Assembly (NCBI GenBank): GCA_025938035.1
Contig: JAICQE010000013.1
Location: forward strand, 1 to 41,580
DNA length: 41,580 nt
Reading direction: 5' to 3'
Origin: Vicinamibacteria bacterium
GTDB taxonomy: Bacteria; Acidobacteriota; Vicinamibacteria; Vicinamibacterales; UBA2999
The number at the start of each line of letters is the position of its first letter. The stretch's first letter is position 1. A program made the translations under genes and the position numbers. Under the pieces are notes generated by a model that had not been told where the DNA came from, made no database searches, and saw only the letters and a list, made by a program, of their open reading frames with translations. Shown here in pieces: positions 1 to 32,427 of the stretch.

Positions 1-96
1 CTCTCGTACATCGCGGCTGTCGGCATGCTTCGCACGCCGACCAATCGAACGGCGGCGTCTCCGTGCGTCCTCCGTTTCTCCGTGGCTCCGTGTTAA
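1..96 (+). CDS. possible 3' end of an upstream gene (partial)
   Basis: The first frame is open from the window edge to a TAA at 94-96 and would encode about 31 residues. No family can be recognised from so short a tail. The last dozen codons are read from the CTCCGTK tract that begins at 59, so the stop codon and C-terminus would come from that tract. It could equally be non-coding. Confidence 0.25.
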   Translation, partial: LSYIAAVGMLRTPTNRTAASPCVLRFSVAPC

Positions 97-125
97 AAAC
101 CGTTTCCTCCGTCCCCTCCGCGTGC
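59..125. repeat. short-period tract, CTCCGTKK unit
   Basis: CTCCGTG at 59-65 is followed by contiguous octamers CTCCGTTT (70-77), CTCCGTGG (78-85) and CTCCGTG (86-92). After TTAAAAACC come further degenerate TCCTCCGT/CCCTCCGC copies. The tract fills the gap before the acyltransferase gene. It belongs to the short-period tracts listed elsewhere in the window, each with its own unit. Confidence 0.7.
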
Positions 126-135
126 TCGGAGGCAC

Positions 136-828
136 GTGGCTGACATCCAGGACCGCACCGTTCACGCCGTTCACGGCCGGCGTGCCGTCGAGCCGGACCC
201 GCCGTTCGAGCGGGAGCTGTCCGAGGCCATGCGCTCCCGGTATGAACCGCGGGCGCTGCTCGAACTGTACGGACGATTCACGTACGGCGAGGGCGAGTTC
301 GACGCTATGATGCGCCGCGCCATCTGCCGGGCGATGACGCGGAGCTTCGGCGACGGGGTGCACGTCGGCCGCGGCGTCCTCTGGCGTCACCCTGAAACGT
401 TCGACGTCGGCTCAGGTGTCTTTATTGGCGATCAGGCGGTGCTGCAGGGGCGTTTCGACGGCAGTTGTGCGATACACGATCGGGTGTGGATCGGGCCGCA
501 AAGCTATTTCGATGCGCGCGACCTGGTCATCGAGGAATATGTTGGGTGGGGACCGGGGGCCCGGGTGCTTGGTTCGACGCACACCGGGATCCCGGCCGAC
601 GTCCCGATCATTCAGACCGATCTCACGATCAGCCCCGTGCGTATCGGTGCGTGGTCGGACATCGGCGTGAATGCGGTGGTGCTGCCGGGCGTGCACGTCG
701 GCAAGGGCGCGATTGTCGGCGCGGGTGCGGTGGTGACCACCGACGTCGAGCCGTTTACGATCGTCGCCGGGGTGCCGGCGAGGTTTCTACGTCGGCGCGA
801 AGGTGCTCCTGAAGCGGAGAAGGTGTGA
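136..828 (+). CDS. hexapeptide-repeat acyltransferase (left-handed beta-helix)
   Basis: A 230-residue protein predicted to transfer an acetyl or other acyl group to a sugar, probably from acyl-CoA in the cytoplasm. Residues about 95-220 show the loose [IV]-G-x-x-x-x hexapeptide periodicity of the maltose/galactoside O-acetyltransferase class, ending in the usual GVPAR tail. A GSTHTG segment carries a His in a position like the catalytic one. The N-terminal 70 residues are not a standard Mac domain. Start is GTG at 136 with GGAGG at 128-132. The stop overlaps the next gene's GTG by 4 nt, so the two are translationally coupled. Position at the head of a polysaccharide operon suggests modification of a repeat-unit sugar. 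The exact acceptor cannot be told. Confidence 0.85.
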   Translation: MADIQDRTVHAVHGRRAVEPDPPFERELSEAMRSRYEPRALLELYGRFTYGEGEFDAMMRRAICRAMTRSFGDGVHVGRGVLWRHPETFDVGSGVFIGDQAVLQGRFDGSCAIHDRVWIGPQSYFDARDLVIEEYVGWGPGARVLGSTHTGIPADVPIIQTDLTISPVRIGAWSDIGVNAVVLPGVHVGKGAIVGAGAVVTTDVEPFTIVAGVPARFLRRREGAPEAEKV

Positions 829-1793
829 GAATCGACGACTCGACAATCGTGGTCACTGGCGGCGCCGGTCTGATTGGATCAACGACCGTCGACCAGCTGC
901 TGCGCCTGCATGCGCCTCGGCGCATCGTCATCTTCGACGACTTCTCGCGCGGCACCCGCGCGAATCTCGCCACTTCCGCCACGGACGCACGCCTGGAGAT
1001 TGTGGAAGGGGACATCAGGGACCGTGACGCCGTCGCGCGTGTGGTCGAAGGCGCTGACGCGCTGATTCACATGGCGGCGCTTCGCATTACGGCCTGTGCG
1101 GCGGATCCACGCGCAGCATTCGACGTCATGTGCACGGGGTCGTTCAACGTCGTCGAAGCGGCGCACCAGGCAGGAGTCCAGAAAATCGTCGCCGCATCGA
1201 CCGCTTCGGTTTACGGCCTCGCCGACACGTTTCCCACCGGCGAGACGCATCACCCATACGGCAACCGGACGTGGTACGGCGCGGCCAAGCTCATGCTCGA
1301 AGGCCTGCTGCGCTCGTTCAACGACATGTACGGCTTGCCGTATGTGGCGCTGCGCTACTTCAACGTCTACGGTCCGCGCATGGACATCGACGGCAAGTAC
1401 ACCGAAGTGCTCATCCGCTGGATGGAGCGGCTCGATGCCGGCCAGCCGCCGCTGATTTACGGTGACGGCAGCCAGACGATGGATTTTGTCTACGTCGATG
1501 ATGCGGCGCGGGCGACCATCCTGGCGCTGGCCTCGAATGTCTCCGATGAGGTCTTCAACGTCGCCAGCGGTGTCGAGACAAGCCTCAACGAGCTCGCGGC
1601 CGCACTGTCGCATGTCATGAACGTGCGGCGCGCGTCCGAGCACGCGCTCGCGCGCACGGTGAATGCGGTGACGCGCCGCCTGGCGGCGACGGAACGGGCC
1701 GAGCGGATGCTCGGGTTCACGGCGGCGGTGTCGCTCGAGGAAGGCCTGGCCCGGCTGGTCGAATGGTGGCGCACGGAGCGCGTGCGCGTGTGA
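825..1793 (+). CDS. NAD-dependent nucleotide-sugar epimerase/dehydratase (extended SDR)
   Basis: A 322-residue extended short-chain dehydrogenase. The Rossmann loop TGGAGLIGS lies at residues 11-19 and the catalytic YGAAK (Y151, K155) is present, with the AASTASVYG strand before it. Members interconvert NDP-hexoses at C4 or C5. The sequence is closest in style to UDP-glucose 4-epimerase-like proteins of O-antigen loci, but the substrate is not determinable here. It starts at GTG 825, overlapping the acyltransferase stop by 4 nt, and ends by overlapping the aminotransferase start by 4 nt. This places it in one transcript with an acyltransferase and an aminotransferase, a set often used to make acylated amino sugars. 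Confidence 0.88.
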   Translation: MRIDDSTIVVTGGAGLIGSTTVDQLLRLHAPRRIVIFDDFSRGTRANLATSATDARLEIVEGDIRDRDAVARVVEGADALIHMAALRITACAADPRAAFDVMCTGSFNVVEAAHQAGVQKIVAASTASVYGLADTFPTGETHHPYGNRTWYGAAKLMLEGLLRSFNDMYGLPYVALRYFNVYGPRMDIDGKYTEVLIRWMERLDAGQPPLIYGDGSQTMDFVYVDDAARATILALASNVSDEVFNVASGVETSLNELAAALSHVMNVRRASEHALARTVNAVTRRLAATERAERMLGFTAAVSLEEGLARLVEWWRTERVRV

Positions 1794-2962
1794 CCGCGGT
1801 CCGCACGCTGATTCCCGTTGCCAGGCCGGCGCTCGGAGAGCGCGAGGCCGACGCAGCGCGGCGTGCGATTCTCTCCGGCTGGGTGTCGCAGGGGCCGGAG
1901 GTCGCGGCGTTCGAACAGGAGTTTGCCGCCGCGGTGGACGCGTCCCATGCCTGCGCGGTATCGAGCTGCACCACCGCACTCCATCTCGCCCTCGTCGCGT
2001 TGGGCGTCGGCCCGGGAGACGAAGTCGTCACGGTGAGCCATTCGTTCATCGCCACGGCCAACGCCATCCGGTACTGCGGCGCCACGCCGGTGTTCGTCGA
2101 TGTCGAGCTCGACACGTTCAATATGGACGTATCGCAGCTCGAGGCCGCCATCAGTCCACGGACCAGGGCGATCCTGGCCGTGCACCAGCTGGGAATGCCC
2201 TGCGATCTGCAGGCGATCACCGGCATCGCCCGCCGGCATAGCCTGCCCGTCATCGAGGATGCCGCCTGCGCCATTGGCAGCGAGATCCGTTGGGACGACG
2301 CATGGCAGCCGATCGGACGGCCCCACGGAGACATCGCCTGTTTTTCCTTTCATCCCCGCAAGCTGCTGTCGACGGGCGATGGCGGCATGCTGACGACACG
2401 CAGCGAGGAGCTCGATCGGCGTTTTCGTCTGCTGCGGCAGCACGGGATGAGCGTCCCCGATACGGTGCGGCATCAGGCGTCCCAGGTCACGTTCGAGGAC
2501 TACCTGATGGTTGGCTTCAACTACCGGATGACCGATATTCAGGGCGCCATTGGACGCGAGCAGATCAAGCGGCTGCCGTCGCTCGTGGCCCGGCGGCGTG
2601 AACGGGCGGCCCGGTATCACGCCGCATTCCGGACGGTCGCCGGCGTGAACGCGCCCGTCGAACCGCAGTGGGCTCGCAGCAACTGGCAAAGCTATGCGGT
2701 CCGCGTGGCCCGTGGCCGCCAGCGCCCGATCATGCAGGCGCTGCTCGACGAGGGGATCTCGACGCGCCGCGGCGTCATGAACGCGCACCGGGAGCAGGCG
2801 TATCCGGCAGGCACCTGGCGCGTTGCTTCGGGGCACGGTCTCGAACGAAGTGAAGAAGCGCAGGACACGGCGATCGTGCTGCCGCTCTTCCACGACCTCG
2901 ACGAAGCGGATCAGAACAGGGTGATCGACGCCGTCACGAAAGCCGTGTCAGCACACGCGTGA
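1790..2962 (+). CDS. DegT/DnrJ/EryC1-family sugar aminotransferase
   Basis: A PLP-dependent aminotransferase of 390 residues that would add an amino group to a keto nucleotide sugar. The PLP lysine is K191 in SFHPRKLLSTGDGG, and the pyridine-nitrogen aspartate is D157 in VIEDAA. I chose GTG at 1790, which overlaps the previous stop by 4 nt as elsewhere in this operon; the frame is open further upstream from 1763. C-terminally it overlaps the GT2 gene by 4 nt (GTGA). Together with the preceding epimerase and hexapeptide acyltransferase it could build an N-acylated amino sugar. The substrate is unknown. Confidence 0.92.
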   Translation: MTAVRTLIPVARPALGEREADAARRAILSGWVSQGPEVAAFEQEFAAAVDASHACAVSSCTTALHLALVALGVGPGDEVVTVSHSFIATANAIRYCGATPVFVDVELDTFNMDVSQLEAAISPRTRAILAVHQLGMPCDLQAITGIARRHSLPVIEDAACAIGSEIRWDDAWQPIGRPHGDIACFSFHPRKLLSTGDGGMLTTRSEELDRRFRLLRQHGMSVPDTVRHQASQVTFEDYLMVGFNYRMTDIQGAIGREQIKRLPSLVARRRERAARYHAAFRTVAGVNAPVEPQWARSNWQSYAVRVARGRQRPIMQALLDEGISTRRGVMNAHREQAYPAGTWRVASGHGLERSEEAQDTAIVLPLFHDLDEADQNRVIDAVTKAVSAHA

Positions 2963-3894: not shown

Positions 3895-3930
3895 CCATTT
3901 CCCCAGGACTCCCAGGAACAGACCGCGCCC

Positions 3931-4854: not shown

Positions 4855-4888
4855 GCATGAATCCGCAGCCGGGACTCCACACAGGTTC

Positions 4889-6394: not shown

Positions 6395-6419
6395 CCGCGG
6401 CCGTTCACGCTTCCACGTG

Positions 6420-6447
6420 CCCGGTTCCCGGTTCGTGTTCAGGTTCG
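6420..6447. repeat. short-period tract, CCCGGTT unit
   Basis: Two exact CCCGGTT heptamers (6420-6426 and 6427-6433) are followed by degenerate units CGTGTTC and AGGTTCG. The tract sits in the 85-nt gap between the aldehyde dehydrogenase and cytidylyltransferase genes. Confidence 0.5.
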
Positions 6448-6479
6448 GTGCTGCGTTCATCGTGCGGAGCCTGTAGTTC

Positions 6480-7238: not shown

Positions 7239-7244
7239 ACATGC

Positions 7245-9940: not shown

Positions 9941-11661
9941 GACTCCAGCGCGTCCTGCGCCGATTTCCACGGCTGTGGCGAATGACACGGCTGGCCCGCC
10001 GCTGGTACTACGCGCGCTACGACGCGTATCCCGACTGGCGCGAGATTCTGGCGGCAAACAGCGAACTCTGGAACTCGGCGCGGGCGTCCGCGCAGGGTGG
10101 GCCCCGCGTGCTGATGGCCACGGCGATCGGCTCCTACGCCCATGCGGTGACGCTGGAAAGCGCGCTCGCCGCCGCGCTGACGTTCCGCGGCGCCGAGGTG
10201 CACGCGCTGCTGTGCGACGGATCGATGTCCGCCTGCGCCGAGTGCGAGGCATCGTTGTATCCGGACATCGAGCGCTTTGTCCGCTACGGTCCGTCACGCG
10301 ACTTGTGCCGGAACTGCCTGCAGCCGGCGGAGCGCGTGTACCGGCAGTTGGGGATTACCGTCCACAAGTACGGCGACTGGCTGACGCCCGAGGATCGCGA
10401 CAACGCGCGCCGCATCGCCCAGGGCGTGTCGGTGCGTGACGTTCGCACGTTCACCGTTGACGGGCTGGCGCTCGGCGAGCATGCCTATGCCGGCGCGCTG
10501 CGGTTCTTCGCGACCGGAACCCTGGACGAAGAGCCTCAGGCGGAGGCCGTAGTCAGGCGCTATCTCGAGTCCGCCTTGCTGACGGCATACGCCACGCGGC
10601 GTCTGCTGCGCGCCAGGCAGTTCACGTCCACGGTGGTGACCCACGGCATTTACGTGCCGTGGGGCATCGTGTCCGAAGTGTCGCGGCAGGAGAACGTGCA
10701 CGTCGCGACATGGAACGTCGCCTACCGCAAGCGCCGTTTCATCTTCAGCCACGACGACACCTACCATCACACGCTGCTCAGCGAATCTCCCGGTCATTGG
10801 GAAAACATGCCGCTGTCGGAGACGCAGGAACGTGACCTGATGACCTACCTGCGCAGCCGGCGGGAAGGCCTGTTCGACTGGATCGTCTTCCATCGGCCGA
10901 ACCGTCTGGAGCCGCAGGAAATGGTGCGGCGGGTAGGCCTGGACAGAAACAAACCGATCGTGGGCCTGCTGACCAACGTGTCGTGGGACGCGCAGATCCA
11001 CTATCCGGCCAACGCGTTTCCGAACATGCTCGAGTGGCTGGTGCAGACGTGCGAATACTTCGCGACGCGTCCCGACCTCCAGCTCCTCATCCGTGTGCAT
11101 CCGGCGGAGATCAGCGGATTCCCGCCCTCACGGCAGCCGATCCTCCGCGAGCTGCAACGGCGGATCCCGCGGCTGGCACCGAATATCTACATCGTGCCGC
11201 CGGAGAGCGCCCTCAGCACCTACGGGCTGATGTCCGAGTGCAACGCCGCGATCATCTACGGCACCAAGATGGGCGTCGAATTGAGCAGCGTCGGGATTCC
11301 CGTCATCGTCGCCGGAGAAGCGTGGGTCAGGAACAAGGGCATCACCTACGACGCGACCTCGCGCGAGGAGTACTTCGACATTCTCCGCCGGCTGCCGTTC
11401 ACCGAGGGGCTCGGGCCGGCACAGCTGGCCCGGGCACGGCGCTACGCCTACCACTTCTTCTTCAACCGGATGATTCCGCTGCCGTTCATCGAGCCGAGCG
11501 CGGGCTTCCCCGTCTACCGGCTCGAGTTGAATCGGCTGCAGCAGCTGCTGCCCGGCGATAACGGTCTCGACACCATTTGCAACGGCATTCTCGGCCGGAC
11601 GCCGTTCGTACTCGGCCGTCACGAAGCGCCGGCACGGCACCCCGAACTGGTCGCTCCCTAG
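9937..11661 (+). CDS. capsule/surface polysaccharide biosynthesis-type protein with cysteine cluster
   Basis: A 574-residue protein. The C-terminal half has a GT-B-like look: PIVGLLTNVSWDAQ, LLIRVHPAE and a SECNAAIIYGTKMGVE segment. These resemble capsule-synthesis (KpsS/LipB-like) or polysialyltransferase-type folds in which an RVHP histidine and a late glutamate matter. Near the N-terminus five cysteines (C93, C100, C103, C124, C127) form two CxxC pairs that could bind zinc. No signal peptide is obvious, but residues 1-25 are strongly basic. Start GTG 9937 overlaps the HAD gene by 4 nt. It is probably a glycosyltransferase or a polymer-processing enzyme; donor and acceptor are unknown. Confidence 0.65.
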   Translation: MRLQRVLRRFPRLWRMTRLARRWYYARYDAYPDWREILAANSELWNSARASAQGGPRVLMATAIGSYAHAVTLESALAAALTFRGAEVHALLCDGSMSACAECEASLYPDIERFVRYGPSRDLCRNCLQPAERVYRQLGITVHKYGDWLTPEDRDNARRIAQGVSVRDVRTFTVDGLALGEHAYAGALRFFATGTLDEEPQAEAVVRRYLESALLTAYATRRLLRARQFTSTVVTHGIYVPWGIVSEVSRQENVHVATWNVAYRKRRFIFSHDDTYHHTLLSESPGHWENMPLSETQERDLMTYLRSRREGLFDWIVFHRPNRLEPQEMVRRVGLDRNKPIVGLLTNVSWDAQIHYPANAFPNMLEWLVQTCEYFATRPDLQLLIRVHPAEISGFPPSRQPILRELQRRIPRLAPNIYIVPPESALSTYGLMSECNAAIIYGTKMGVELSSVGIPVIVAGEAWVRNKGITYDATSREEYFDILRRLPFTEGLGPAQLARARRYAYHFFFNRMIPLPFIEPSAGFPVYRLELNRLQQLLPGDNGLDTICNGILGRTPFVLGRHEAPARHPELVAP

Positions 11662-11663
11662 AA

Positions 11664-11740
11664 ACTCCCAACTCCCAAAGTCCCAACTCCCAGCGCTCGA
11701 GGGCCGGCTTTTTGGGAATTGGAAGTTGGGCGTTGGGAGT
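11664..11740. repeat. inverted pair of heptamer tracts (ACTCCCA / TGGGAGT)
   Basis: ACTCCCA occurs at 11664-11670, 11671-11677 and 11686-11692, with the variant AAGTCCCA between. The opposite-sense heptamers TGGGAAT, TGGAAGT, TGGGCGT and TGGGAGT follow at 11713-11740. The two arms can pair as a long imperfect hairpin around a GC-rich loop. Placed 3 nt after a stop codon, it may act as a transcription terminator or stabilise the 3' end. It also leaves little room for a promoter of the next gene. Confidence 0.75.
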
Positions 11741-11755
11741 TAGTCTGTACCCGCA

Positions 11756-13543
11756 TTGCTGATCGCCGCTGCCTTCGTGGTCGCCACGGCGGCCTCACTG
11801 GCGCTCGGAGCCGTCGTCCGCCGGTTCGCTCCGTCGATTGGTGCGGTCGTTCCCCCACGACCCGATCGATGGCATCGCGCCCCGACGCCGACCATGGGGG
11901 GGGTCGCCATCGGGTTGGCGACGGTCATCGGATTCCTCGTGGTCGTCGCGCGGCCGTCGGTGGTCGGCGACCTTCTGCCCTGGGTTCCGGTGTTGGCGGC
12001 GTCGCTGGCAATGTTCGTCGTCGGCGTCCTCGACGATCGGCTGCAGCTGTCGCCGACGGCGAAGCTCGTCGCGTCGCTCGCCATCGGCGCGTTTCTGGTG
12101 TTCGCGCTGGCGGGCACCGAACCTGATGCCGCCAGGCAGGCGCTGCACACGCTGATTGCCATCGTGTGGTTCGCCGGCGTCTGCCATGCGTTCAATCTGC
12201 TCGACAACATGGACGGACTGGCCGCCGGCGTCGCGTTCATCGCCACCGCTTTCTTCGCGTACCTGCTGGCGAACGAGCTCGGCACGGCGATGGTCGTGCT
12301 GCTGGCGTCGCTGGCAGGTGCCTTGATCGGATTTCTGTTCTGGAACCGTCCGACGGCGCGGCTGTTCATGGGGGATTCCGGGAGCCTCTTCATCGGCGCG
12401 ATGCTGGCATCCACGTCGCTCGTTCCCATCCTTCGCGGCGGGGTGGCGTTATCGAGTCCGATCGTGCCGATCGCGTTGATTCTCGCCGTGCCGTTGTTCG
12501 ACACGGCCTTCGTCCTCGTGCTGCGCCGCCTTGCCGGCCGCAAGGCCAGCAAGGGCGGCACGGACCACGTGTCGCATCGGCTCGTCTCGCTGGGATTCTC
12601 CGAGCGGACGGCCGTCCGTTTTCTCTACCTGCTCGGACTCATTGCCGGTGGCGTGGCGGCCGTGATGGTCCTGAACGACCGTCCGGAGCCGCAGCTGCCG
12701 ATCATCGCCGCGGTTGGCGTCGTGATGACGCTGGTTGGCATTTACCTGGCGCGCGTGCCCGCTTACAACGCCGAGGATTTTCTTGCGCTCCAGAAGTCGT
12801 CGTTCGCGCCGTTCCTCAAGGACCTGGCGTTCAAGTGGCACGCTGGTCAGGTCCTGCTCGACCTCATCCTGATCACCGTCTGCTATTACGCCGCATACCG
12901 GCTTCGGTTCGAGGGCGAGAACTTCGACTTCCTGCAGTCCTTCATGGTGTCGCTGCCGGTCGTGCTCGGCTGCAAGTTGGCGGCGCTGTACGCGTCGGGC
13001 CTCTACCAACGCTCCTGGGACACGTTCGGACTGCGCGATCTGTCCGTCGTCGCCCGCGGCGTGGCGGTCGGATCGCTGCTGTCGGTGGCGGCAGCGTTCT
13101 ATCTGTATCGCAACGTGGTCGCGTCTCGCGCCGTGTTCGTCTTCGACGCGACCCTGCTGGCCATCGCCATCGTCGCCACGCGCGTCTCGTTCCGGATGAT
13201 GAATCTGGCCGCCGCCACCCGCAATAAACGGAGCCGCCGGGTGCTGGTGTACGGCGCCGGCAACTTCGGGCGTCTGCTCGTCCGCGAAATGCGCGCAAAT
13301 ACGGCCTGGAACATGAACCCGGTCGCCTTCATCGATGACGATGCGGCGAAGATCCACCGCTGGATCGTCGGCGTGCCGGTTCGCGGTTCGATCGACAGCC
13401 TCGAGACGACGATGCGCCAGTACGGTGTGGACGAGGTGATTCTGAGCAGCCGCGCGATCAACGGCAACGTCGAGACGCGCATCCGCGAAATCTGCACTCG
13501 CGCCAACCGTCCTGTGCGCCGGTTGTACATGGAGATTCAGTAA
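11756..13543 (+). CDS. fusion: MraY/WecA-type phosphoglycosyltransferase plus CapD/FlaA1-type N-terminal module
   Basis: A 595-residue two-part protein. Residues 1-330 are a polytopic polyprenyl-phosphate N-acetylhexosamine-1-phosphate transferase: D93/D94 in VLDDR, the NLLDNMDG signature at 147-154, GDSGS at 206-210 and a histidine loop GTDHVSHR at 268-275. It would start repeat-unit synthesis on undecaprenyl phosphate. Residues about 345-595 match the start of CapD/WbpM-type dehydratases: four membrane segments, then a Rossmann fold (YGAGNFG, 499-505; AFIDDD). The protein ends before the catalytic SDR domain, so the second part probably only binds nucleotide or regulates. The start codon is uncertain: TTG 11756 or GTG 11777, neither with a clear ribosome-binding site. 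Confidence 0.88.
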   Translation: MLIAAAFVVATAASLALGAVVRRFAPSIGAVVPPRPDRWHRAPTPTMGGVAIGLATVIGFLVVVARPSVVGDLLPWVPVLAASLAMFVVGVLDDRLQLSPTAKLVASLAIGAFLVFALAGTEPDAARQALHTLIAIVWFAGVCHAFNLLDNMDGLAAGVAFIATAFFAYLLANELGTAMVVLLASLAGALIGFLFWNRPTARLFMGDSGSLFIGAMLASTSLVPILRGGVALSSPIVPIALILAVPLFDTAFVLVLRRLAGRKASKGGTDHVSHRLVSLGFSERTAVRFLYLLGLIAGGVAAVMVLNDRPEPQLPIIAAVGVVMTLVGIYLARVPAYNAEDFLALQKSSFAPFLKDLAFKWHAGQVLLDLILITVCYYAAYRLRFEGENFDFLQSFMVSLPVVLGCKLAALYASGLYQRSWDTFGLRDLSVVARGVAVGSLLSVAAAFYLYRNVVASRAVFVFDATLLAIAIVATRVSFRMMNLAAATRNKRSRRVLVYGAGNFGRLLVREMRANTAWNMNPVAFIDDDAAKIHRWIVGVPVRGSIDSLETTMRQYGVDEVILSSRAINGNVETRIREICTRANRPVRRLYMEIQ

Positions 13544-13546
13544 TTC

Positions 13547-13593
13547 AAAAGGCAAAAGGCAAAAGGCAAAAGGCAAAAGGCAAAAGGCAAAAG
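13547..13593. repeat. heptamer tract, AAAAGGC x6.7
   Basis: Six exact tandem copies of AAAAGGC (13547-13588) plus AAAAG start 4 nt after the stop of the WecA-like fusion. On the minus strand the tract reads as a repeating FAFCLLP-like peptide in any frame, which explains long spurious reading frames there. Heptanucleotide tandem repeats are known in cyanobacteria as STRR sequences. Here the tract is next to a second, different heptamer tract. Confidence 0.92.
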
Positions 13594-13605: not shown

Positions 13606-13633
13606 TTTTGAATTTTGAATATTGAATCTTGCA
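13606..13633. repeat. heptamer tract, TTTTGAA unit
   Basis: Four contiguous heptamers, TTTTGAA, TTTTGAA, TATTGAA and TCTTGCA, fill the gap up to the next gene. The most upstream usable start of that gene, TTG 13629, lies inside the fourth unit. Confidence 0.8.
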
Positions 13634-14783
13634 TTCCACCAATCAGCGAAGTCTGAGGGTTGGTATAGATGGCCGGGCCTTTACCTCGCCCGCACCGGGC
13701 ATCCGGCGCTATGTCGAAGGTCTGGTGCCGGCGCTCCTGGCCCTCGCGGATGCACCGGACATCGTTGTCCTCGGTGGGCAGCCCGACGCGGCGCCGCCGC
13801 ACCTCGAACGCATAGCCGAGCGGGCACACCCGCCGACCAACGCCGGGTGGACGCTCGTCGGGCTCCCCCGCGCTGCCGCCGGCGCCAGGCTCGACGTCCT
13901 CCATGCCCCGGCGTATACCGCGCCATTCTGGTCGCCTGCGCCGGTCGTGCTGACGATCCACGACATCAGCTACGAACGTAATCCGGAGTGGTACCCGTAT
14001 CGGCGCGACTGGCTACGCCGGGCCTTTTACCGTTGGAGCGCACACGCGGCGGATCACATCATGGCCACCTCGTCGTTCTCGGCATCGGAGATCGCGGAGA
14101 TGTACGGACTCGATGCCAGCCGAGTGACGGTGGTGCCGCTCGGCGTTTCAAGTGACTTCGCAGGCCCGCGTGGGGGGCTGCCGTGCGCGCTGCCAGTCGA
14201 GGTCGCCACGCCGTTTCTCCTGCACGTCGGTGACATTCACGAGCGGCGGAACCTGTCCGTTGCGGTCACCGCCGTGCTCGAGGCGCGGCGGCATTTTGGC
14301 GCGCTCCCTGCGTTATCGCTCGTCCTGGCGGGAACGGATCGTGGAACCGGCGACGCGTTGTGTGCGCTCGCTGCCGACGCCGGCGCGCCGGAGGCGGTCG
14401 TGCGGCTCGGCCGAGTCGAGGAGCCGCTGCTGCATTCGCTCTACCGGTGTGCAACCGCCTTCGTCTACCCGTCGCGGTACGAAGGCTTTGGTTTCCCCGT
14501 TCTGGAAGCGATGGCCTGCGGCACACCGGTCATCGCCTCCCGCGCCGCCTCGATTCCCGAGTTGACCGGCGACGCTGCCATCCTGCTCGATCCCGATGAT
14601 GACCGGGGCTGGACGGACGCAGTGATGCGCATCGTGACCGACGACGAGCTGCGCAGCGAGCTGGCGACACGCGGTGTTGCGCGCGCGGGTCTGTTCACAT
14701 GGGCGCGGACCGCGCGCGCGACGATGGACGTGTATCAGAGGTGTCTGGCCGAAGCGGCGAATCGGCGAGGGCGGAGGCCCTGA
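13629..14783 (+). CDS. family 4 (GT-B) glycosyltransferase
   Basis: A protein of up to 384 residues. An N-terminal donor-independent half (VGIDGRAFTSPAPGIRRYVEGL) is followed by a Rossmann half with the EX7E signature EGFGFPVLE (E285, E293) and CGTPVIASRAASIPE, as in mannosyl- and rhamnosyltransferases. It would use an NDP-sugar to extend the repeat unit in the cytoplasm. The start is unclear. TTG 13629 lies within the TTTTGAA tract, and the conserved fold begins about ten residues later with no other ATG/GTG/TTG close by (only a CTG). The gene may use a weak start or depend on upstream translation. GDP-mannose or GDP-6-deoxyhexose is a plausible donor given gmd nearby. Confidence 0.9.
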   Translation: MHSTNQRSLRVGIDGRAFTSPAPGIRRYVEGLVPALLALADAPDIVVLGGQPDAAPPHLERIAERAHPPTNAGWTLVGLPRAAAGARLDVLHAPAYTAPFWSPAPVVLTIHDISYERNPEWYPYRRDWLRRAFYRWSAHAADHIMATSSFSASEIAEMYGLDASRVTVVPLGVSSDFAGPRGGLPCALPVEVATPFLLHVGDIHERRNLSVAVTAVLEARRHFGALPALSLVLAGTDRGTGDALCALAADAGAPEAVVRLGRVEEPLLHSLYRCATAFVYPSRYEGFGFPVLEAMACGTPVIASRAASIPELTGDAAILLDPDDDRGWTDAVMRIVTDDELRSELATRGVARAGLFTWARTARATMDVYQRCLAEAANRRGRRP

Positions 14784-15795: not shown

Positions 15796-16643
15796 CACCC
15801 CCGCTGGGCGCCGTCATCGTGAATTACAACGCAGGTCCGGAACTGCGGCGCGCGCTCCAGTCGATCGACCGCGAGGCGGGCGGATCGTGGCAGGGCGTCG
15901 TCGTCGACAACGCATCTGCCGACGGCAGCGAGGCCGCGGCCATGGAGTTTGCCCAGGTCCGTCTCGTGCGCAACTCCGAGAACGTGGGCTTTGCCCGCGG
16001 GGTGAATCAGGCGATTCGTGAGTGTCCAGCCGATCGCATCGTCATCATGAACCCCGACTGCCAGCTGATGCCGGGCTCACTGCCTCCGCTCATGGCGGTG
16101 CTGGACTCCGACCCGCGGTGCGCGATCGTCGCACCGCTCGTCCGCGATCCCGATGGGTCGCCGCAGGGGAATGCGCGCGGCGATCCCGACATGCTCACCG
16201 GCTTGTTTGGACGTTCGAGTGCGCTCCGTCGAACGCTTCCGGCACTGGAAGTCGCACGCCGCAACGTGATCGTCGGCACGGCGGACGATGCCTCGACCAC
16301 CGTGGATTGGGTCTCCGGAGCGTGCATGCTCGTGCGTCGCGACGCCTTTGTCGGCGTCGGCGGCTTCGACGAGCGGTATTTCATGTATTGGGAGGACGCC
16401 GACCTGTGCCGTCGCCTTCGGGCGCGTGGCCACACGATCCGTTTCGCGCCGGCCGCCGCGGCCGTGCATCGGGTCGGCCAGTCGAGCCGAACGGCGCGGG
16501 CCCAATCCGTTCGGGCCTTTCATGACAGCGCCTACCTTTACTATTCGACGCACGTCGCCCCGGGGGTGCTCAACCCCAAACGATGGATCGCGCGCGCGCT
16601 GCTGGCGAGCCGCTGCTGGTGGAAGCTGGCACGGGGCGCGTAG
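15792..16643 (+). CDS. family 2 glycosyltransferase
   Basis: A 283-residue GT-A enzyme paralogous to the gene before it: GAVIVNYNAG at the N-terminus, VVDNASADGS (37-46), metal-binding MNPD (86-89), and YWEDADLCRRLRARG near the acceptor site. It starts at ATG 15792 inside the preceding stop, so the pair is translationally coupled, and is shorter at the C-terminus. It ends 1 nt before the stop of the convergent flavoprotein gene, closing the long + strand run. Donor and linkage are unknown. Confidence 0.9.
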   Translation: MTPPLGAVIVNYNAGPELRRALQSIDREAGGSWQGVVVDNASADGSEAAAMEFAQVRLVRNSENVGFARGVNQAIRECPADRIVIMNPDCQLMPGSLPPLMAVLDSDPRCAIVAPLVRDPDGSPQGNARGDPDMLTGLFGRSSALRRTLPALEVARRNVIVGTADDASTTVDWVSGACMLVRRDAFVGVGGFDERYFMYWEDADLCRRLRARGHTIRFAPAAAAVHRVGQSSRTARAQSVRAFHDSAYLYYSTHVAPGVLNPKRWIARALLASRCWWKLARGA

Positions 16644-21760: not shown

Positions 21761-21765
21761 TCAGC

Positions 21766-21807
21766 AATCCCAAAGCCCGACCCAACCCCAATCCCCAACC
21801 CCGAACT
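21766..21807. repeat. C-rich heptamer tract filling the thiS-thiG gap
   Basis: Six degenerate heptamers (AATCCCA, AAGCCCG, ACCCAAC, CCCAATC, CCCAACC, CCGAACT) take up almost the whole space between thiS and thiG. On the thiG transcript the tract would be G-rich and lie directly before the thiG start, where it could affect ribosome access. Confidence 0.55.
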
Positions 21808-21808
21808 G

Positions 21809-22039: not shown

Positions 22040-22070
22040 GGTAGAGGCCGACCTTCAGGTCGGCCTTTCA
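22040..22070 (+). repeat. REP-like palindrome, copy A
   Basis: A 31-nt element with stem AGGCCGACC/GGTCGGCCT (22045-22066) and loop TTCA. It matches the copy at 38227-38257 at 30 of 31 positions and shares both ends with the element at 20957-20985. It lies in the leader between divergent thiS and the GltD-PyrK fusion. Confidence 0.85.
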
Positions 22071-22080
22071 TCGTTTTAGT

Positions 22081-22098: not shown

Positions 22099-22121
22099 CC
22101 TGTCAAACGCCCCCGCCTTGG

Positions 22122-22138: not shown

Positions 22139-22163
22139 GCCATTCGCTGATTTCGACACCTAG

Positions 22164-25694: not shown

Positions 25695-25710
25695 AATGCA
25701 GAATCTTGCA

Positions 25711-26691: not shown

Positions 26692-26698
26692 CGACTGG

Positions 26699-26706
26699 AT
26701 TATATT
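26699..26706. promoter_or_regulatory. overlapping divergent -10 elements (TATAAT on -, TATATT on +)
   Basis: The minus strand reads TATAAT at 26704-26699, 7 nt before the glk ATG. The plus strand reads TATATT at 26701-26706, 9 nt before GTG 26716. Two promoters would share the same melted bases, so the genes may be expressed in competition, and both mRNAs would lack a leader. Confidence 0.5.
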
Positions 26707-26715
26707 GGTCACGTC

Positions 26716-27528: not shown

Positions 27529-27545
27529 CTGTTGCTGGTTTGAAC

Positions 27546-27563
27546 CGCGAAGCCCGCGAAGCC
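27546..27563. repeat. 9-mer tract, CGCGAAGCC x2
   Basis: Two exact copies of CGCGAAGCC stand just after the stop of the HTH-TPR gene. Their complement, GGCTTCGCG, matches the pattern of the tract at 27716-27742. Confidence 0.6.
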
Positions 27564-27715
27564 GGCTTGCCCGAGCCAGTGGACGCTGGTGTGCGCGCGA
27601 GGCTGGCCTTGTCCAAAGCGAGGGTGCGTCACGTCTCCCTTTCCCAGCGATCCGGTTAGGCGGTGGCGGGATCGACGTTGTGCCGCGCACCTGCCCGATA
27701 GAAGAGTGTTCTTCG

Positions 27716-27742
27716 GTCTTAGCGTCCTTCGCGACCTTTGCG
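27716..27742. repeat. 9-mer tract, NYCTTNGCG pattern
   Basis: Three 9-mers, GTCTTAGCG, TCCTTCGCG and ACCTTTGCG, are in register. Each ends in GCG with a variable base before it. Confidence 0.65.
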
Positions 27743-27776
27743 TAAAGGCCGGTGAACGAGGCACCCGACGATCCGG

Positions 27777-27794
27777 GTCCGCCTGAAGGCGGAC
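27777..27794. repeat. palindrome GTCCGCCTGAAGGCGGAC
   Basis: An 8-bp perfect stem with a GA loop. The identical 18-nt palindrome occurs in the opposite orientation at 38549-38566, and the match extends to about 21 nt. Confidence 0.8.
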
Positions 27795-27823
27795 ACTACG
27801 AACTATCCAACTACGAACTAGTA
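27795..27823. repeat. heptamer tract, ACTACGA unit
   Basis: ACTACGA, ACTATCC, ACTACGA and ACTAGTA are arranged with one extra A. The stop codon and last residues of the minus-strand Cys protein are read from this tract. Confidence 0.6.
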
Positions 27824-28216
27824 CGAGTATTCGTCGCGCGGCTCGCGCTTCTTCGGCGCGCGGCGCAGCTTGTAGTACTGGCACTCCGGGCACCACGCGT
27901 CGGCGTCGAAGCCGGCGGTGCCGGCGTAGGGTTTGACTTCCCGGTGTGTGCAGAACGCCGCGTTGCCGTCCTCGGCAGGCTGCTGCCATCGGCACGAACC
28001 AAACCGCACGAACGCGGCGGATTGCGGATTGTCCGACGTCACAGTGCTTGCTGTCGAGGTGCTTGCTGTCGAGGCAGTGCTGGCCGTCGACGCGGCCGAT
28101 CCAGGCGCAACCGCCGGGGCTTCCGGTGCCGTGGGAGAGGACGCCGACATCGGCGCCCGGGCGCTGTCACCCGGCGCACCCTGATTGATCGGATTGTTAT
28201 TGAAGTTGAACCCCAA
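27818..28216 (-). CDS. small four-cysteine protein with AST-rich linker
   Basis: A 132-residue protein of unknown function. Residues 1-70 are low-complexity and rich in Ala, Ser, Thr and Pro, with an AST repeat (about 42-58) encoded by a 15-nt DNA repeat (28044-28058 and 28059-28073 are identical). The C-terminal half contains C75, C89, C109 and C112 (the last pair CPEC) with aromatic neighbours, suggesting a small zinc-binding or iron-sulfur fold, followed by a basic KLRRAPKKR tail. Start is TTG 28216, overlapping the helicase 3' end by 20 nt. Downstream position to the helicase suggests co-transcription. An RNA-associated role is possible but unproven. Confidence 0.6.
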   Translation of the reverse strand: MGFNFNNNPINQGAPGDSARAPMSASSPTAPEAPAVAPGSAASTASTASTASTSTASTVTSDNPQSAAFVRFGSCRWQQPAEDGNAAFCTHREVKPYAGTAGFDADAWCPECQYYKLRRAPKKREPRDEYSY

Positions 28217-29516: not shown

Positions 29517-29694
29517 ACGGAGAGACGCCGACGGTCACACGGTCGCCAGGCACCACCTTGATACGGAAACGGCGCATCCGGCCGCTCAACTGCGCCAGCA
29601 CTTCGTGTCCGGCGTCGCATTGCACGCGATACAGCCCGCCCGAATGAACGGCCACGACCGTTCCCTGCATATCTATGAGATCGTCCTTGCTCAA
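29476..29694 (-). CDS. infA: translation initiation factor IF-1
   Basis: A 72-residue S1/OB-fold protein with the classical length and sequence (MQGTVVAVHSGGLYRV, LSGRMRRFRIKVVPGDRVTV, SPYDPVRGIITFR). It binds the 30S A site during initiation. Start is TTG 29694 with AAAGGATGAG a few bases upstream as the ribosome-binding region. The gene is not in a ribosomal-protein operon here but leads a two- or three-gene unit with the DEAD-box helicase and the Cys protein. Confidence 0.96.
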   Translation of the reverse strand: MSKDDLIDMQGTVVAVHSGGLYRVQCDAGHEVLAQLSGRMRRFRIKVVPGDRVTVGVSPYDPVRGIITFRAR

Positions 29695-29853
29695 TCAGCT
29701 CATCCTTTCACCGAATCGTAGCAACGAGTGTGCCATAGCTGGTGAATACGTGCAACGTACTGACGTACAGGAATTTGTAGGATTTTCAGTCCAATTCGAA
29801 TGGCCGCTGAACGACAGCGAGTGAGAGCCGTGCTGCTCATCGATGGAACACGA

Positions 29854-32358
29854 TCACAACGTCCTCACGGCCTGTTCGACCCGTGCGGCCAGAGCCGCAT
29901 AGTCGTCTCCGCGCAGCCGGAGCGGAGCTCCGAACGCGACGCGAACACGTCCGGGACGAATGAACGTCGAACCGACCGGCATCAACCGATCGACGTGCTC
30001 CAGCTTCACCGGCACGACCGGCAGGTCGAGTCGTGATGCGATCATTCCGATGCCGCCGCGAAACGGCTTGAGCTGCCCCGTCGGCGATCGCACGCCTTCG
30101 GGGAAGAGCAGGATCGACATCCCGCTGCCCGTCACCTCTCCCATGTATCGCAGCGAATGCCGGGCGCCCGCTTCACGCTGCGGTATCGGGAACGCGTTGA
30201 AGTAGAAGCACGCCAGGTAGTAGTTCAGCGAGTTCGTGAACACTTCGCGCCACGTGTGCTCATCGGGGTGGAAGTGCGCCTCGAAGAACTCCTTGAGCAT
30301 CGCCGGCGCCACGCGGCTCCGCCAGCGACCAGGCAGCGCGGACAGAATCACCGGCACGTCCATGTGACTCTGGTGATTCGACGCGAAGATCACCGGGCCG
30401 TCGAGTGCGGCCAGATGCTCATGGCCCTCGACGCGTAGGTACGCGAACAGGCGCGTCAGCGGGACGATCCACGTCGCCTGCGACAGCCGGCGGATCAGCC
30501 GCACGGGCTGGCGGCGGTTCCAGGCCGGGAAGTCGACCGGCTCCTCGACTGCCGCGGCGGCCGGCGGCGCCTCGACCAGCTGTTTCAGATCGGCGATGCT
30601 TGCGGCGTCCGAGAAGCGGGCTTCGTCGATTCGCGTCTGGAATCGATCCTCGAGTGCGACCATCAGCTCGACGCGCTCCAGCGAACTGAGGCCGAGTTCC
30701 TCCAGCGTCGTTCCGGCACCGACCTGCCGGCCGCGCGCGTACCGCGCAATCAGCGCCTCCAGCGAGTCGCCCTGCGGCGCTGTCGGCGACTGACCGCCCG
30801 TTCGCACCCAGTCGCGAATCGCCGCCCGTTTCAGCTTGCGTGTGCCCTCCGTGCGTGGCAGTTGCGCGGCGCCCCAGACCGAGATCGTGCGAATGCGCTG
30901 GTGATCCTGCAAGCGGGCGTTCGCCTCGCGGATGACTCGATCGGGATCGACGCCCGGTTCCAATACGACCACGGCGTGGACACGTTCCTGGGCGCCTTCC
31001 GCCACCCCGACCACCGCCGACTCGCGAACGCCGGCGACGTCGTTGACCGCCCGCTCGACATCCTCCGGAAAGACATTCAGCCCTTCCGGCGTGACGATCA
31101 TTTCCTTCTTCCGCCCGCGAATGAACAGCCGGCCCTGCTCGTCGAGCCCGCCGATGTCGCCAGTGTGGAACCATCCATCCGCGTCGAATACGCCTTCCTG
31201 CAACTTGTCACTGGCCACTTGTGACTTGCCACTTTCGTAATACCCGCTGGTGACGTTCTCCCCACGCACGAGGATCTCGCCATCCTCGGCGATCTTCACG
31301 TCCACGCCGGCTATCGGCGTCCCGACCGATCCCTTGCTCGTCCTGAACGGATGGTTCAGCGTGACGATCGGCGCCGTTTCCGTCAGCCCGTATCCCTGAA
31401 TGACTGCGAATCCCAGCCGGCGCCAGAACTCCTCGAGGTCCGGCGCGAGCGGCGCCGCGCCGACGACGAACGCCCAGAACTTCAGGCCGAACGCCGAGTG
31501 AACACGGCGATAGCGCCACCATCGGCCCGGAATGGAAATGCCGGCGGGCGGCGGCTCCTGTGTCTCCGGCATCGTCCGCACGACGTGTTCGCGCAGCACG
31601 TCGAGGATCTTCGGCACGCACACGAGGACCGACACGCGCCGCGACCTGATCAAACGGACGATGTCGTGCGGGTTGAAGCTGCGCGTGAAGATGGCCGTCC
31701 CGCGAATCATCGGCGGCACATTCGTCGCCATCGACTGGCCGAACATGTGGCTCAGCGGAAGCAGGTTGACGAAGCGGATCGGATGAAACGGCCGTGCATA
31801 CTTCCGGTACTTCAGGATCTCGCGCTCGACCGGCACGATGTTCGCCAGCACATTGCGGTGCCTGATCACCACTCCCTTCGGCTCGGCGGTGGCGCCCGAT
31901 GTGAAGATGATCTGCGTGACGTCGTCGCGCGTCATCGGGACGTCCGGCATCGGCCCGTCGCCGCGCCAGTCGAGATCGGAAAGCCGCCAGTGCTCCGGTC
32001 CTGACAGGTCGCCGGGCGTGACGTCGTCGCCGAGGAGCGTCAGTCTCGCCGCCACGATTCCCGCGACCTTGCGCACGAATTCGGCGGACGACCGGTAGTC
32101 GATCGGGACGACGATGATTCCGGCGATGAGGCAGCCCCAGTAGCAGGCAATCCACTCCGGCCGGTTTTCGCCCCAGAAGATCACCTTGTCGCCCTGGCGG
32201 ATGCCGGCGGCGCTCAGGCGTGCGGCGAAGCCGCGCGCGGCGCGGCCCACCTCCGCGTAGGAGTGCACCCGGCGCTTGTAGCCGTCGTCATAGACGAGGA
32301 AATCGCCGCGGATCGTGATGAGATCCGCGAAAAAGTCGACCAGCGTCTCACGGCGCAC
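29854..32358 (-). CDS. tri-domain acyl-AMP ligase, acyl carrier protein and PlsC-type acyltransferase
   Basis: An 834-residue fusion. Residues 1-520 are an AMP-binding fatty-acid ligase: TSGATAEPKG (153-162), YGLTETAP (323-330), FHTGD (397-401), and a late catalytic lysine near 508-510. Residues about 530-595 are an acyl carrier domain with phosphopantetheine serine S559 in GLSSLE. Residues 615-834 are a lysophospholipid acyltransferase with HX4D (H662, D667 in NHQSHMD) and FPEG (752-755). The chain could activate a free fatty acid, load it on its own carrier and transfer it to a lysolipid. Start is GTG 32358, 6 nt after CATAAT, so possibly leaderless. Residues 376-390 are an unusual insertion from a repeat tract. 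Confidence 0.92.
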   Translation of the reverse strand: MRRETLVDFFADLITIRGDFLVYDDGYKRRVHSYAEVGRAARGFAARLSAAGIRQGDKVIFWGENRPEWIACYWGCLIAGIIVVPIDYRSSAEFVRKVAGIVAARLTLLGDDVTPGDLSGPEHWRLSDLDWRGDGPMPDVPMTRDDVTQIIFTSGATAEPKGVVIRHRNVLANIVPVEREILKYRKYARPFHPIRFVNLLPLSHMFGQSMATNVPPMIRGTAIFTRSFNPHDIVRLIRSRRVSVLVCVPKILDVLREHVVRTMPETQEPPPAGISIPGRWWRYRRVHSAFGLKFWAFVVGAAPLAPDLEEFWRRLGFAVIQGYGLTETAPIVTLNHPFRTSKGSVGTPIAGVDVKIAEDGEILVRGENVTSGYYESGKSQVASDKLQEGVFDADGWFHTGDIGGLDEQGRLFIRGRKKEMIVTPEGLNVFPEDVERAVNDVAGVRESAVVGVAEGAQERVHAVVVLEPGVDPDRVIREANARLQDHQRIRTISVWGAAQLPRTEGTRKLKRAAIRDWVRTGGQSPTAPQGDSLEALIARYARGRQVGAGTTLEELGLSSLERVELMVALEDRFQTRIDEARFSDAASIADLKQLVEAPPAAAAVEEPVDFPAWNRRQPVRLIRRLSQATWIVPLTRLFAYLRVEGHEHLAALDGPVIFASNHQSHMDVPVILSALPGRWRSRVAPAMLKEFFEAHFHPDEHTWREVFTNSLNYYLACFYFNAFPIPQREAGARHSLRYMGEVTGSGMSILLFPEGVRSPTGQLKPFRGGIGMIASRLDLPVVPVKLEHVDRLMPVGSTFIRPGRVRVAFGAPLRLRGDDYAALAARVEQAVRTL
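31203..31234. repeat. heptamer tract ACTTGNC inside a coding region
   Basis: Units ACTTGTC, ACTGGCC, ACTTGTG, ACTTGCC and ACTT run without a gap. On the coding strand they read in frame as residues of SGKSQVASDKLQ in the ligase, between the adenylation-domain YYE and FDADGWFHTGD motifs. About six residues are extra compared with usual spacing in this family. Confidence 0.8.
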
Positions 32359-32364
32359 CGGTAA

Positions 32365-32370
32365 ATTATG
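32365..32370 (-). promoter_or_regulatory. candidate -10 CATAAT for the ligase fusion
   Basis: On the minus strand CATAAT is followed by 6 nt and then the GTG start at 32358, the same tight geometry as glk and the TAXI protein. No leader or ribosome-binding site fits between. Confidence 0.4.
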
Positions 32371-32383
32371 ATTCGTTCCCTGA

Positions 32384-32427
32384 CGGCATTCGGCATTCAG
32401 TACGCTGAATTCCTCTGATCCTCTGAA
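32384..32427. repeat. heptamer/octamer tract forming the leader of the DAC-like gene
   Basis: CGGCATT x2 (32384-32397), CAGTACG and CTGAATT are followed by octamers CCTCTGAT and CCTCTGAA, then CTT and the ATG. The tract occupies the whole space where a ribosome-binding site would be expected, and none is visible. Confidence 0.7.

What the first reader, a model, noticed from the sequence alone, without database searches (positions are those of the whole stretch)
59..32427. Short-period tandem tracts with a different unit at each gene border
At least eleven tracts share a 7-nt (sometimes 8- or 9-nt) period but not a sequence: CTCCGTKK (59), CCCAGGAMY (3902), CCCGGTT (6420), ACTCCCA/TGGGAGT (11664), AAAAGGC (13547), TTTTGAA (13606), a C-rich unit (21766), CGCGAAGCC (27546), NYCTTNGCG (27716), ACTACGA (27795), ACTTGNC (31203) and CGGCATT (32384). 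All but one sit directly at the end or start of a gene. A common process that expands heptamers regardless of sequence would explain this better than a mobile element. Heptanucleotide STRRs of cyanobacteria are the nearest known analogue.
Basis: partly seen in the sequence, partly recalled or inferred. Interest (0 to 1): 0.78.

Follow-up and report, generated by a model that had tools for sequence, protein, structure and literature searches.

The report
Heptamer-armed hairpin repeats at gene borders
The short 7-letter tandem repeats wedged between genes in this soil bacterium are real; many repeats of this kind are the arms of inverted, hairpin-shaped repeats that come in families and turn over quickly at gene ends, a broader version of something reported before for single repeat units in Xanthomonas and Nostoc.

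Summary
In detail: 11 lag-7-to-9 segments in the window's 19 gaps, 0.44 expected. In 81 acidobacterial loci the excess is concentrated at lags 7, 8 and their multiples, and in intergenic DNA.

The AACTCCC...GGGAGTT pair at 11662-11741 belongs to a dispersed family, with 2-49 matches in 8 of 10 window-clade genomes and none in ten others. Its arms are conserved, its loops near chance, and its arms do not covary. Sister species carry different heptamers, or hairpin versus none, at one border. Inside one protein linker four orthologs carry four different heptamers.

So heptamers do arise locally whatever their sequence, but that alone does not explain the inverted pairing and dispersed families. 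SbcCD loss and stop-codon units were tested and not supported; RAYT transposition is unlikely. Closest known: inverted GGGAATC/GGGGAYT heptamers of Xanthomonas and Nostoc. New variant of a known kind; how arms spread is unknown.

The parts
70..92 (+). 8-nt array CTCCGTGG just before the gene at 136
   Evidence: lag 8, score 9
3902..3918 (+). CCCAGGA, under 2 copies; below threshold, may be chance
   Evidence: not found at score 8 or more
6420..6434 (+). CCCGGTT x2.1 in the gap 6395-6479; weak alone
11662..11692 (+). left arm AACTCCC x4 (imperfect) of an inverted pair, beginning directly after the stop codon at 11661
11712..11741 (+). right arm GGGAATT GGAAGTT GGGCGTT GGGAGTT; 11656-11745 folds to -41.1 kcal/mol (z -3.3); member of a dispersed family in window-clade genomes
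13546..13593 (+). CAAAAGG x6.9, perfect, directly after the stop codon at 13543
   Evidence: only 0-9 partial matches per genome in 20 genomes
13606..13631 (+). TTTTGAA x3.7, imperfect; partial inverse (CAAAA/TTTTG) of 13546-13593; fold weak (z -1.4)
21765..21806 (+). C-rich heptads (CCCCAAT/CCCCAAC) in the 48-bp gap between thiG and thiS
27545..27563 (+). CCGCGAAGC x2.1 in the convergent gap 27529-27817; perhaps the left arm of a decayed pair with 27716
   Evidence: pairing read by eye; fold of 27529-27660 no better than shuffles
27716..27740 (+). imperfect 9-nt units TTNGCGNCC; below threshold
27795..27820 (+). ACTACGA x3.6 ending at the stop of the minus-strand ORF 27818-28216
   Evidence: lag 15
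31199..31234 (-). intragenic heptads (CAAGTGG-like in sense) in a length-variable linker of the AMP-binding/acyltransferase protein; three orthologs have other heptamers there
32384..32398 (+). CGGCATT x2.1 in the divergent gap 32359-32430; weak alone
32411..32426 (+). TCCTCTGA x2 in the same gap
38215..38232 (+).

Best explanation
These are short-period (7 nt; also 8 and 9) tandem arrays that arise mainly at gene borders and, in this part of the Acidobacteriota, often exist as the two arms of an inverted pair able to fold into a hairpin between one gene and the next. Shown: period-specific enrichment in intergenic DNA, inverted pairing, closeness to gene ends, scarcity in divergent (promoter) gaps, genome- or clade-specific dispersed families, and turnover between relatives. 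Inferred: (1) an array is seeded by local slippage of 7-8 nt and grows one or two units at a time; (2) a second, inverted array arises by fold-back or template switching; (3) arm sequences are then copied to other borders by ectopic template switching or conversion between arrays, which keeps arms similar while loops and flanks stay unrelated; (4) they persist where an insertion does least harm: 3' ends, convergent gaps, protein linkers. A regulatory role for individual copies is possible but not shown.
For: Period: lag 7 58 segments and lag 8 29 in intergenic DNA of 81 loci, 0.3 in shuffles, 4.4 and 1.3 in coding DNA scaled to the same length; 43, 26, 19, 11, 11 at lags 14, 16, 21, 24, 28. 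Pairing: 95 of 251 tracts have an inverted partner of score 14 or more, 39 of 251 a direct one, 3 of 251 in a random-flank control. Place: array-bearing gaps 52/226 convergent against 25/217 divergent, p = 0.0016; copies of the 11656 family lie a median 5 nt from a gene end, 26 of 30 within 12 nt. Dispersal: the window's 11656-11745 hairpin has 49, 48, 32, 20, 19, 6, 2, 2 matches in 8 of 10 window-clade genomes, 0 in the ten others searched; the L022 element has 94 matches in its genome, 45 in its sister, 1, 0, 0 in three congeners. Turnover: a 271-bp hairpin gap in L022 is 30 bp in L062 and about 25 bp in L015; AAGAAGG in L017 against GATTTCA/GACTTCG in L025 at the same gap; four heptamers in one linker of four orthologs. 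Arms against loops: mean identity 0.68 and 0.71 against 0.29 in 41 rows; shuffled loops give 0.27. Stepwise growth: 47 of 77 arrays.
Against: Step 3 has no direct evidence and no enzyme. Arms of one element are no more complementary to each other than to other copies' arms (22.21 against 22.27 pairs of 30, p = 0.54, 34 of 41 rows), so fold-back copying, if it happened, is old. Arm and loop similarity are weakly correlated over pairs of copies (Spearman 0.19, pairs not independent), which hints that some copies did move with their loops. In the L022 family the inner part matches too (about 72-77% identity over most of 271 nt), like copying of a whole element. Copies were found by similarity to the arms, which favours conserved arms. 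Arrays with a partner are a minority (95/251). The CAAAAGG tract has few relatives and may be purely local. Small excesses also occur at other lags (10, 13, 15, 17, 20, 26: 5, 5, 10, 5, 6, 5).
Confidence: 0.55

Rival explanations
1. Sequence-blind local slippage alone: replication slips by 7 nt anywhere tolerated, each tract independent.
For: 98 distinct heptamers in 151 tracts; neighbouring units more alike than distant; different units at one border in L017/L025; in one protein linker the window, L001, L002 and L037 carry CAAGTGG-like, CGGATCC, CCCAAGT/CCCCAAT and CCCGAAG units, while 14 of 18 aligned orthologs have no lag-7, -8, -9 or -14 segment of score 8 there; arrays after the same orthologous stop codon in 4 of 47 loci at score 10 or more (one more at score 9), each with its own unit.
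Against: Dispersed families, up to 94 matches in a genome; within-genome recurrence of units; inverted pairing of 95/251 tracts, which simple slippage does not make.
Confidence: 0.22
2. Conventional non-autonomous mobile elements (REPIN- or MITE-like), moved as whole hairpins by a transposase.
For: Dispersion, genome specificity, gain of a 271-bp hairpin gap in L022, conserved interior in that family, inverted doublets with single-arm matches also present, weak arm-loop correlation.
Against: Loops of the 11656 family near chance identity and 0-31 nt long; no arm compensation, whereas REPINs have a characteristic spacing and common compensatory changes (PMC3116915, passages); Y1_Tnp not found in 4 of 15 genomes, among them array-rich G002 and G011.
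Confidence: 0.15
3. Transcription terminators or mRNA 3'-end hairpins kept by selection for pairing.
For: Position near stop codons, excess in convergent over divergent gaps, strong predicted folds of many pairs, G-rich sense strand at stop ends 92 against 39, p = 4e-6, and no bias at start ends, 37 against 41.
Against: No covariation between arms; most tracts lack a partner; sister species lack one at the same border; an ordinary hairpin followed by Ts is present at 22045-22066; the 11656 family reads C-rich first, against the G-rich rule.
Confidence: 0.05
4. Arrays of binding sites for a protein or RNA-binding factor with a 7-nt footprint, with arms constrained and loop free.
For: Arms conserved, loops not; about four units per arm; similar proposals for TAACTGA repeats (PMC4679880, abstract).
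Against: The unit differs from border to border in the same genome, so no single sequence-specific factor could read them all.
Confidence: 0.03

Closest known systems
GGGAATC (Xanthomonas) and GGGGA(C/T)T (Nostoc) intergenic heptameric repeats, PMC4692102
   Same: Period 7, intergenic, close to ORF ends, under-represented between divergent genes, 70 and 75 inverted pairs in two Xanthomonas genomes, mostly four units, G-rich on the coding strand downstream of ORFs, length and sequence variation between related species (sections 10 and 16 read).
   Different: There one unit type is studied per genome; here many units and periods 7, 8, 9 occur in one genome, and sister species have different units at one border.
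Heptanucleotide STRRs of cyanobacteria
   Same: Tandem heptamers; the window's C-rich unit CCCCAAT is, rotated, the reverse complement of Nostoc GGGGATT.
   Different: Not compared in detail: no cyanobacterial DNA was analysed here (one search found no record). The STRR name is recalled; PMC4692102 mentions three heptanucleotides in Calothrix.
REP/REPIN elements, PMC3116915, PMC3733652
   Same: Dispersed extragenic inverted doublets that can form hairpins, plus single arms.
   Different: REPINs: characteristic spacing, conserved 16-mers, compensatory changes, RAYT transposase (passages). Here heptad arms, near-random loops, no compensation, Y1_Tnp not found in some rich genomes.
TAACTGA repeats of Beggiatoaceae, PMC4679880
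   Same: Intergenic heptamer direct repeats next to genes, patchy across phyla (abstract).
   Different: One unit, mostly upstream of start codons, direct.
Borg tandem repeats, PMC9879509
   Same: Each locus has its own unit, recent and fast evolving, thought to arise from local sequence (passages).
   Different: Perfect repeats, archaeal extrachromosomal elements, about half in ORFs; no inverted pairing or fixed 7-nt period in the passages seen.

Membership tests
Xanthomonas/Nostoc inverted heptameric repeats | period-7 arrays enriched in intergenic DNA | tested here: met
Xanthomonas/Nostoc inverted heptameric repeats | inverted pairs in close proximity | tested here: met
   95/251 against 3/251 control
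Xanthomonas/Nostoc inverted heptameric repeats | under-represented in divergent gaps; G-rich on coding strand downstream of ORFs | tested here: met
   but the window's 11656 family is C-rich first
Xanthomonas/Nostoc inverted heptameric repeats | one G-rich, G4-forming unit (GGGNATC, GGGGAYT) | tested here: not met
   98 distinct heptamers, many without G3
REPIN | inverted doublet dispersed in extragenic DNA | tested here: met
   (3 of 40 copies were called inside an ORF)
REPIN | characteristic spacing and compensatory stem changes | tested here: not met
   loops 0-31 nt; own against swapped arms p = 0.54
REPIN | RAYT (Y1_Tnp) in the genome | tested here: inconclusive
   found in 11 of 15 genomes; not in array-rich G002 and G011; MAGs may be incomplete
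MITE-type element | target-site duplication and conserved ends with conserved interior | tested here: inconclusive
   clean gain in L022 with ends GCTCATTG...CAATGAGC, no duplication evident by eye; interior similar in that family, loops not in the 11656 family
Intrinsic terminator | stem kept by pairing | tested here: not met
   no covariation in the one family tested
Intrinsic terminator | RNA 3' ends map to the hairpin | not testable with these tools
   no RNA data
Cyanobacterial STRR | tandem heptanucleotides in a cyanobacterial genome, copy-number variable | not tested
   no cyanobacterial sequence obtained

The most novel reading that the evidence does not exclude
A class of dispersed bacterial elements defined by period and fold rather than sequence: each genome breeds its own families of heptad- or octad-armed hairpins, which occupy gene 3' borders, keep arms but not loops, and are replaced by other families at the same border within the divergence of sister species, driven by a polymerase-slippage and template-switching process that needs no dedicated transposase.
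Probability: 0.3. Interest if true: 0.8.

Novelty: new variant of a known kind. Interest (0 to 1): 0.6.

Why it matters
Why heptamers are over-represented among bacterial tandem repeats is open (polymerase contact size was suggested, as quoted in PMC4692102). Here are genomes in which about a quarter to a third of the gaps carry such arrays (29/86 and 53/198), next to a related genome with a 6.1-Mb chromosome and none at lags 7 and 8 in 35.5 kb of sampled intergenic DNA. The trait varies within one phylum, so its genetic cause could be mapped. A single protein linker in which four orthologs carry four different heptamers is a compact natural record of the process. The conserved-arm, free-loop, non-covarying design separates dispersal from selection on RNA folding.

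Tried and rejected
Chance or composition: rejected by shuffles and coding controls; E. coli K-12 50 kb gave none at any lag 2-17.

Frame-independent stop cassettes (unit contains a stop codon): observed 0.34, expected 0.34 at stop ends; rejected.

SbcCD loss as the permissive cause: promising in 15 genomes but not in 65. sbcD over cut-off in 8 (10 more genomes have only matches below it); arrays in the fetched locus in 3 of those 8 against 26 of 57 without (tallied by hand). recA control, run on 50 of the 65: a match in 49, over cut-off in 44. Rejected as determinant. The one rich sbcD-positive genome sampled, G012, has fewer and shorter inverted pairs (16/74 at score 14, 5/74 at score 18) than G003+G011+G010+G002 (40/86, 22/86; p = 0.0015 each): one genome only.

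RAYT transposase: not found in 4 of 15 genomes. MAGs may miss genes.

Selection for RNA pairing: own against swapped arms equal in the 11656 family; other families not tested.

Patchiness on a tree of the query protein: 18 of 69 loci have two or more arrays, 12 changes against 16.1 shuffled: clustered but patchy. Locus counts are noisy: L062 scores 0, yet its genome G004 holds 45 matches to the L022 element.

Limits. No genome is held for the window, so dispersal in its own genome is untested. Gene calls are my own codon-model calls, not annotation; the window gene set was typed by hand with some starts moved inward (e.g. 13629 to 13670). Two Dadabacteria loci (L036, L047) got almost no gene calls: they counted as intergenic and nearly drop out later, so their zeros in the sbcD tally are unreliable. 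L027 (99.6% identical to L039) was dropped from then on. One search looked at 47 of the 80 loci, at 17. The 40 copies were picked by hand, mostly from the top's list, thus biased to full-length ones; a few were split wrongly into arm and loop (e.g. L292, L320), and without seven doubtful rows loop identity is still 0.29; one search used 34 of 41 rows (L292 and rows with arms under 30 nt dropped) and 30 of 40 contexts (contig-edge cases dropped). blastn matches count both strands and single arms, and first-look candidates were capped at 40, so they are neither element counts nor full tallies. Metagenome collections and other phyla were not examined.

This favours local, sequence-blind origin; I raised that rival from 0.20 to 0.22, lowered the terminator rival from 0.07 to 0.05 and raised interest from 0.58 to 0.60.

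Literature: listings showed no report of this in Acidobacteriota; one search held one paper, one search listed 12 of 3,708; only open-licence PMC papers are held, so absence is weak. Read: PMC4692102 sections 10 and 16 plus passages; PMC4679880 outline and abstract; PMC9879509, PMC12699852, PMC4666352, PMC3116915, PMC3733652 passages only. The 2007 study of simple repeats in prokaryotes is known here only as quoted in PMC4692102.
Full report
WHAT THE WINDOW IS. The 41.6 kb come from an acidobacterium near the Vicinamibacteria: the best relatives of the protein at 29854-32358 are mostly acidobacterial MAGs at up to 75% identity. It carries glycan, thiamine and transport genes and others. No whole genome is held for it, so relatives carry the argument.

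THE OBSERVATION. In the 19 gaps (2,962 bp), lags 7-9 give 11 segments of score 8 or more against a mean of 0.44 and a maximum of 3 in 300 first-order shuffles. Lags 3-6 and 10-12 give none, lags 13-15 four. This is not a composition effect.

A PROPERTY OF THE CLADE, NOT OF ONE GENOME, BUT PATCHY. Over 81 loci (1.46 Mb), intergenic DNA has 58 lag-7 and 29 lag-8 segments of score 11 or more against 0.3 in shuffles; coding DNA, scaled, gives 4.4 and 1.3. Lags 14, 16, 21, 24, 28 give 43, 26, 19, 11, 11; lag 9 gives 9; lags 10-13 give 3-5 each and lag 15 gives 10; lags 2-6 give 3 in all. In samples of single genomes the lag-7/lag-8 counts are 21/5 (G011), 33/11 (G012), 10/13 (G003), 9/2 (G002), 4/0 (G010) and 0/0 in G001 (6.1-Mb chromosome, 400 kb sampled, 35.5 kb intergenic); shuffles give 0 at these lags. 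Arrays sit in 29 of 86, 53 of 198, 12 of 58 and 5 of 72 gaps of G011, G012, G002 and G010. E. coli K-12 gives none in 50 kb. On a protein tree the trait is clustered but patchy.

Of 251 unique tracts, 95 have a reverse-complement partner of score 14 or more within 200 bp, 39 a direct one, and 3 in a random-flank control. An earlier count at score 12 gave 66 of 144 inverted, 31 direct, and 19 with the best of up to ten random flanks. Many pairs fill the whole gap from stop codon to next gene and fold strongly. In the window the pair at 11662-11692 and 11712-11741 starts on the stop codon at 11661 and folds to -41.1 kcal/mol, z -3.3. CAAAAGG x6.9 at 13546 and TTTTGAA at 13606 are a half-matching pair with a weak fold.

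PLACE. Arrays are in 23% of convergent, 20-22% of co-directional and 11.5% of divergent gaps of at least 40 bp (p = 0.0016 convergent against divergent, G001 left out). In gaps of at least 120 bp, 51 of 148 tracts lie within 12 nt of a gene end (mean distance 42, expected 58). At stop-codon ends arrays are G-rich in the sense direction, 92 against 39; at start ends 37 against 41. The window's own 11656 family runs the other way, C-rich first.

UNITS. 98 distinct canonical heptamers occur among 151 period-7 tracts. Within a genome, tracts of different gaps match to one mismatch in 9.7% of pairs, between genomes 3.0%, in shuffled units 1.9%; for period 8 it is 22.9% against 3.3%. So the unit is free, yet families exist in each genome.

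DISPERSED FAMILIES. The L022 element (271 bp) has 94 matches in G003, 45 in sister G004, 1 in G017 and none in G016 and G018. Queries spanning arrays of L017, L021 and L034 have 23, 50 and 44 matches in their own genomes, most of them to the array parts. The window's 11656-11745 hairpin matches, often nearly end to end, in G021 (49), G022 (48), G009 (32), G010 (20), G020 (19), G024 (6), G019 (2) and G041 (2), with none in G023 and G029 and none in ten genomes outside the window's close clade. In 41 rows (40 copies and the window) each arm has about four heptads; mean identity is 0.68 (left), 0.71 (right) and 0.29 in loops of 0-31 nt, where shuffled loops give 0.27. Own arms pair no better than swapped ones, 22.21 against 22.27 of 30, p = 0.54; arm and loop similarity correlate weakly, Spearman 0.19. 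The CAAAAGG tract has only partial matches (0-9 per genome).

TURNOVER AT BORDERS. The L022 gap 14333-14603 is 30 bp in sister L062 and about 25 bp in L015, a gain in L022; the next gap holds a roughly 300-bp hairpin in L022 and a 42-bp one with a similar outer stem in L062; a third gap has both. In L017 and L025 (86% identical) one gap with near-identical flanks holds AAGAAGG units in one and GATTTCA/GACTTCG units in the other; another differs by exactly 16 nt (two octamers); one array is conserved over 35 nt. After the same orthologous stop codon, 4 of 47 loci examined carry arrays at score 10 or more, all of different units.

THE INTRAGENIC EXCEPTION. The window's one intragenic tract lies in a variable linker of the AMP-binding domain. 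Of 18 orthologs aligned, L002 carries 86 nt of CCCAAGT/CCCCAAT units (lag-7 score 52), L001 CGGATCC x4.3, perfect (score 23), L037 CCCGAAG x2.4 (score 10), and the window CAAGTGG-like units (lag-14 score 12); the other 14 have no segment of score 8 at lags 7, 8, 9 or 14. Coding DNA of the 81 loci has 0.02 lag-7 segments of score 10 per kb (27 in 1.25 Mb), so three in 18 linkers of 50-140 bp is far above chance. Four different units at one site speak for local, sequence-blind origin. Units side by side are more alike than distant ones in 47 of 77 arrays.

HOW IT LIKELY WORKS. The 7-8-nt step, the unit gradients and the linker point to slippage as the source. Inverted pairing and dispersal need more: fold-back or template switching, then copying between borders. 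Near-random loops and absent covariation argue against a whole-element transposon and against selection on RNA pairing in the 11656 family; the L022 family, with its similar interior, fits whole-element copying better. Scarcity near promoters and in most coding DNA argues for retention where harmless. The copying step is inference.

COMPARISON. The nearest published case is the GGGAATC/GGGGAYT heptamers of Xanthomonas and Nostoc, with inverted pairs, four units, ORF-end placement and coding-strand G-richness (PMC4692102). The difference is unit diversity within a genome and unit replacement between sisters. REPIN membership fails on spacing and compensation.

VERDICT. Observation confirmed; interpretation partly supported; new variant of a known kind.

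Noticed in passing
window 27777-27794, 38549-38566, 41416-41433: A short palindrome GTCCGCCTNNAGGCGGAC occurs three times in the window (third copy with 2 mismatches; 0.02 expected), and matches overlapping the first copy (query part about 27769-27804) are common in relatives, e.g. 53 in G021 and 41 in G019; a separate, non-heptad dispersed hairpin.
   Followed up: partly
window 34870-35012: A 34-bp near-perfect stem without heptads, -82.4 kcal/mol, z -6.5, in the 603-bp gap before a ClpP-like gene; looks like a MITE-type inverted repeat.
   Followed up: no
window 36112-36326: c-di-AMP riboswitch (RF00379, 62.3 bits) directly upstream of a K_trans (potassium transporter) gene at 36329-38191, with a weak DAC-domain match (below cut-off) in 32431-33786 of the same window.
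   Followed up: partly
window 22045-22066: Ordinary hairpin followed by Ts, a conventional terminator by its look.
   Followed up: no
L025 4116-4143 and 4674-4708; L017 4816-4852: Octamer arrays in inverted orientation lie about 500 bp apart around a small called ORF, like terminal arrays of a larger unit.
   Followed up: no
L025 about 16194-16292: The array starts with GACTTC straight after the flank GAAGTCAAGG, as if seeded by fold-back of the flank.
   Followed up: no
window 28044-28074: A perfect 15-nt unit GTGCTTGCTGTCGAG in 2.1 copies inside ORF 27818-28216, which has no Pfam match.
   Followed up: no
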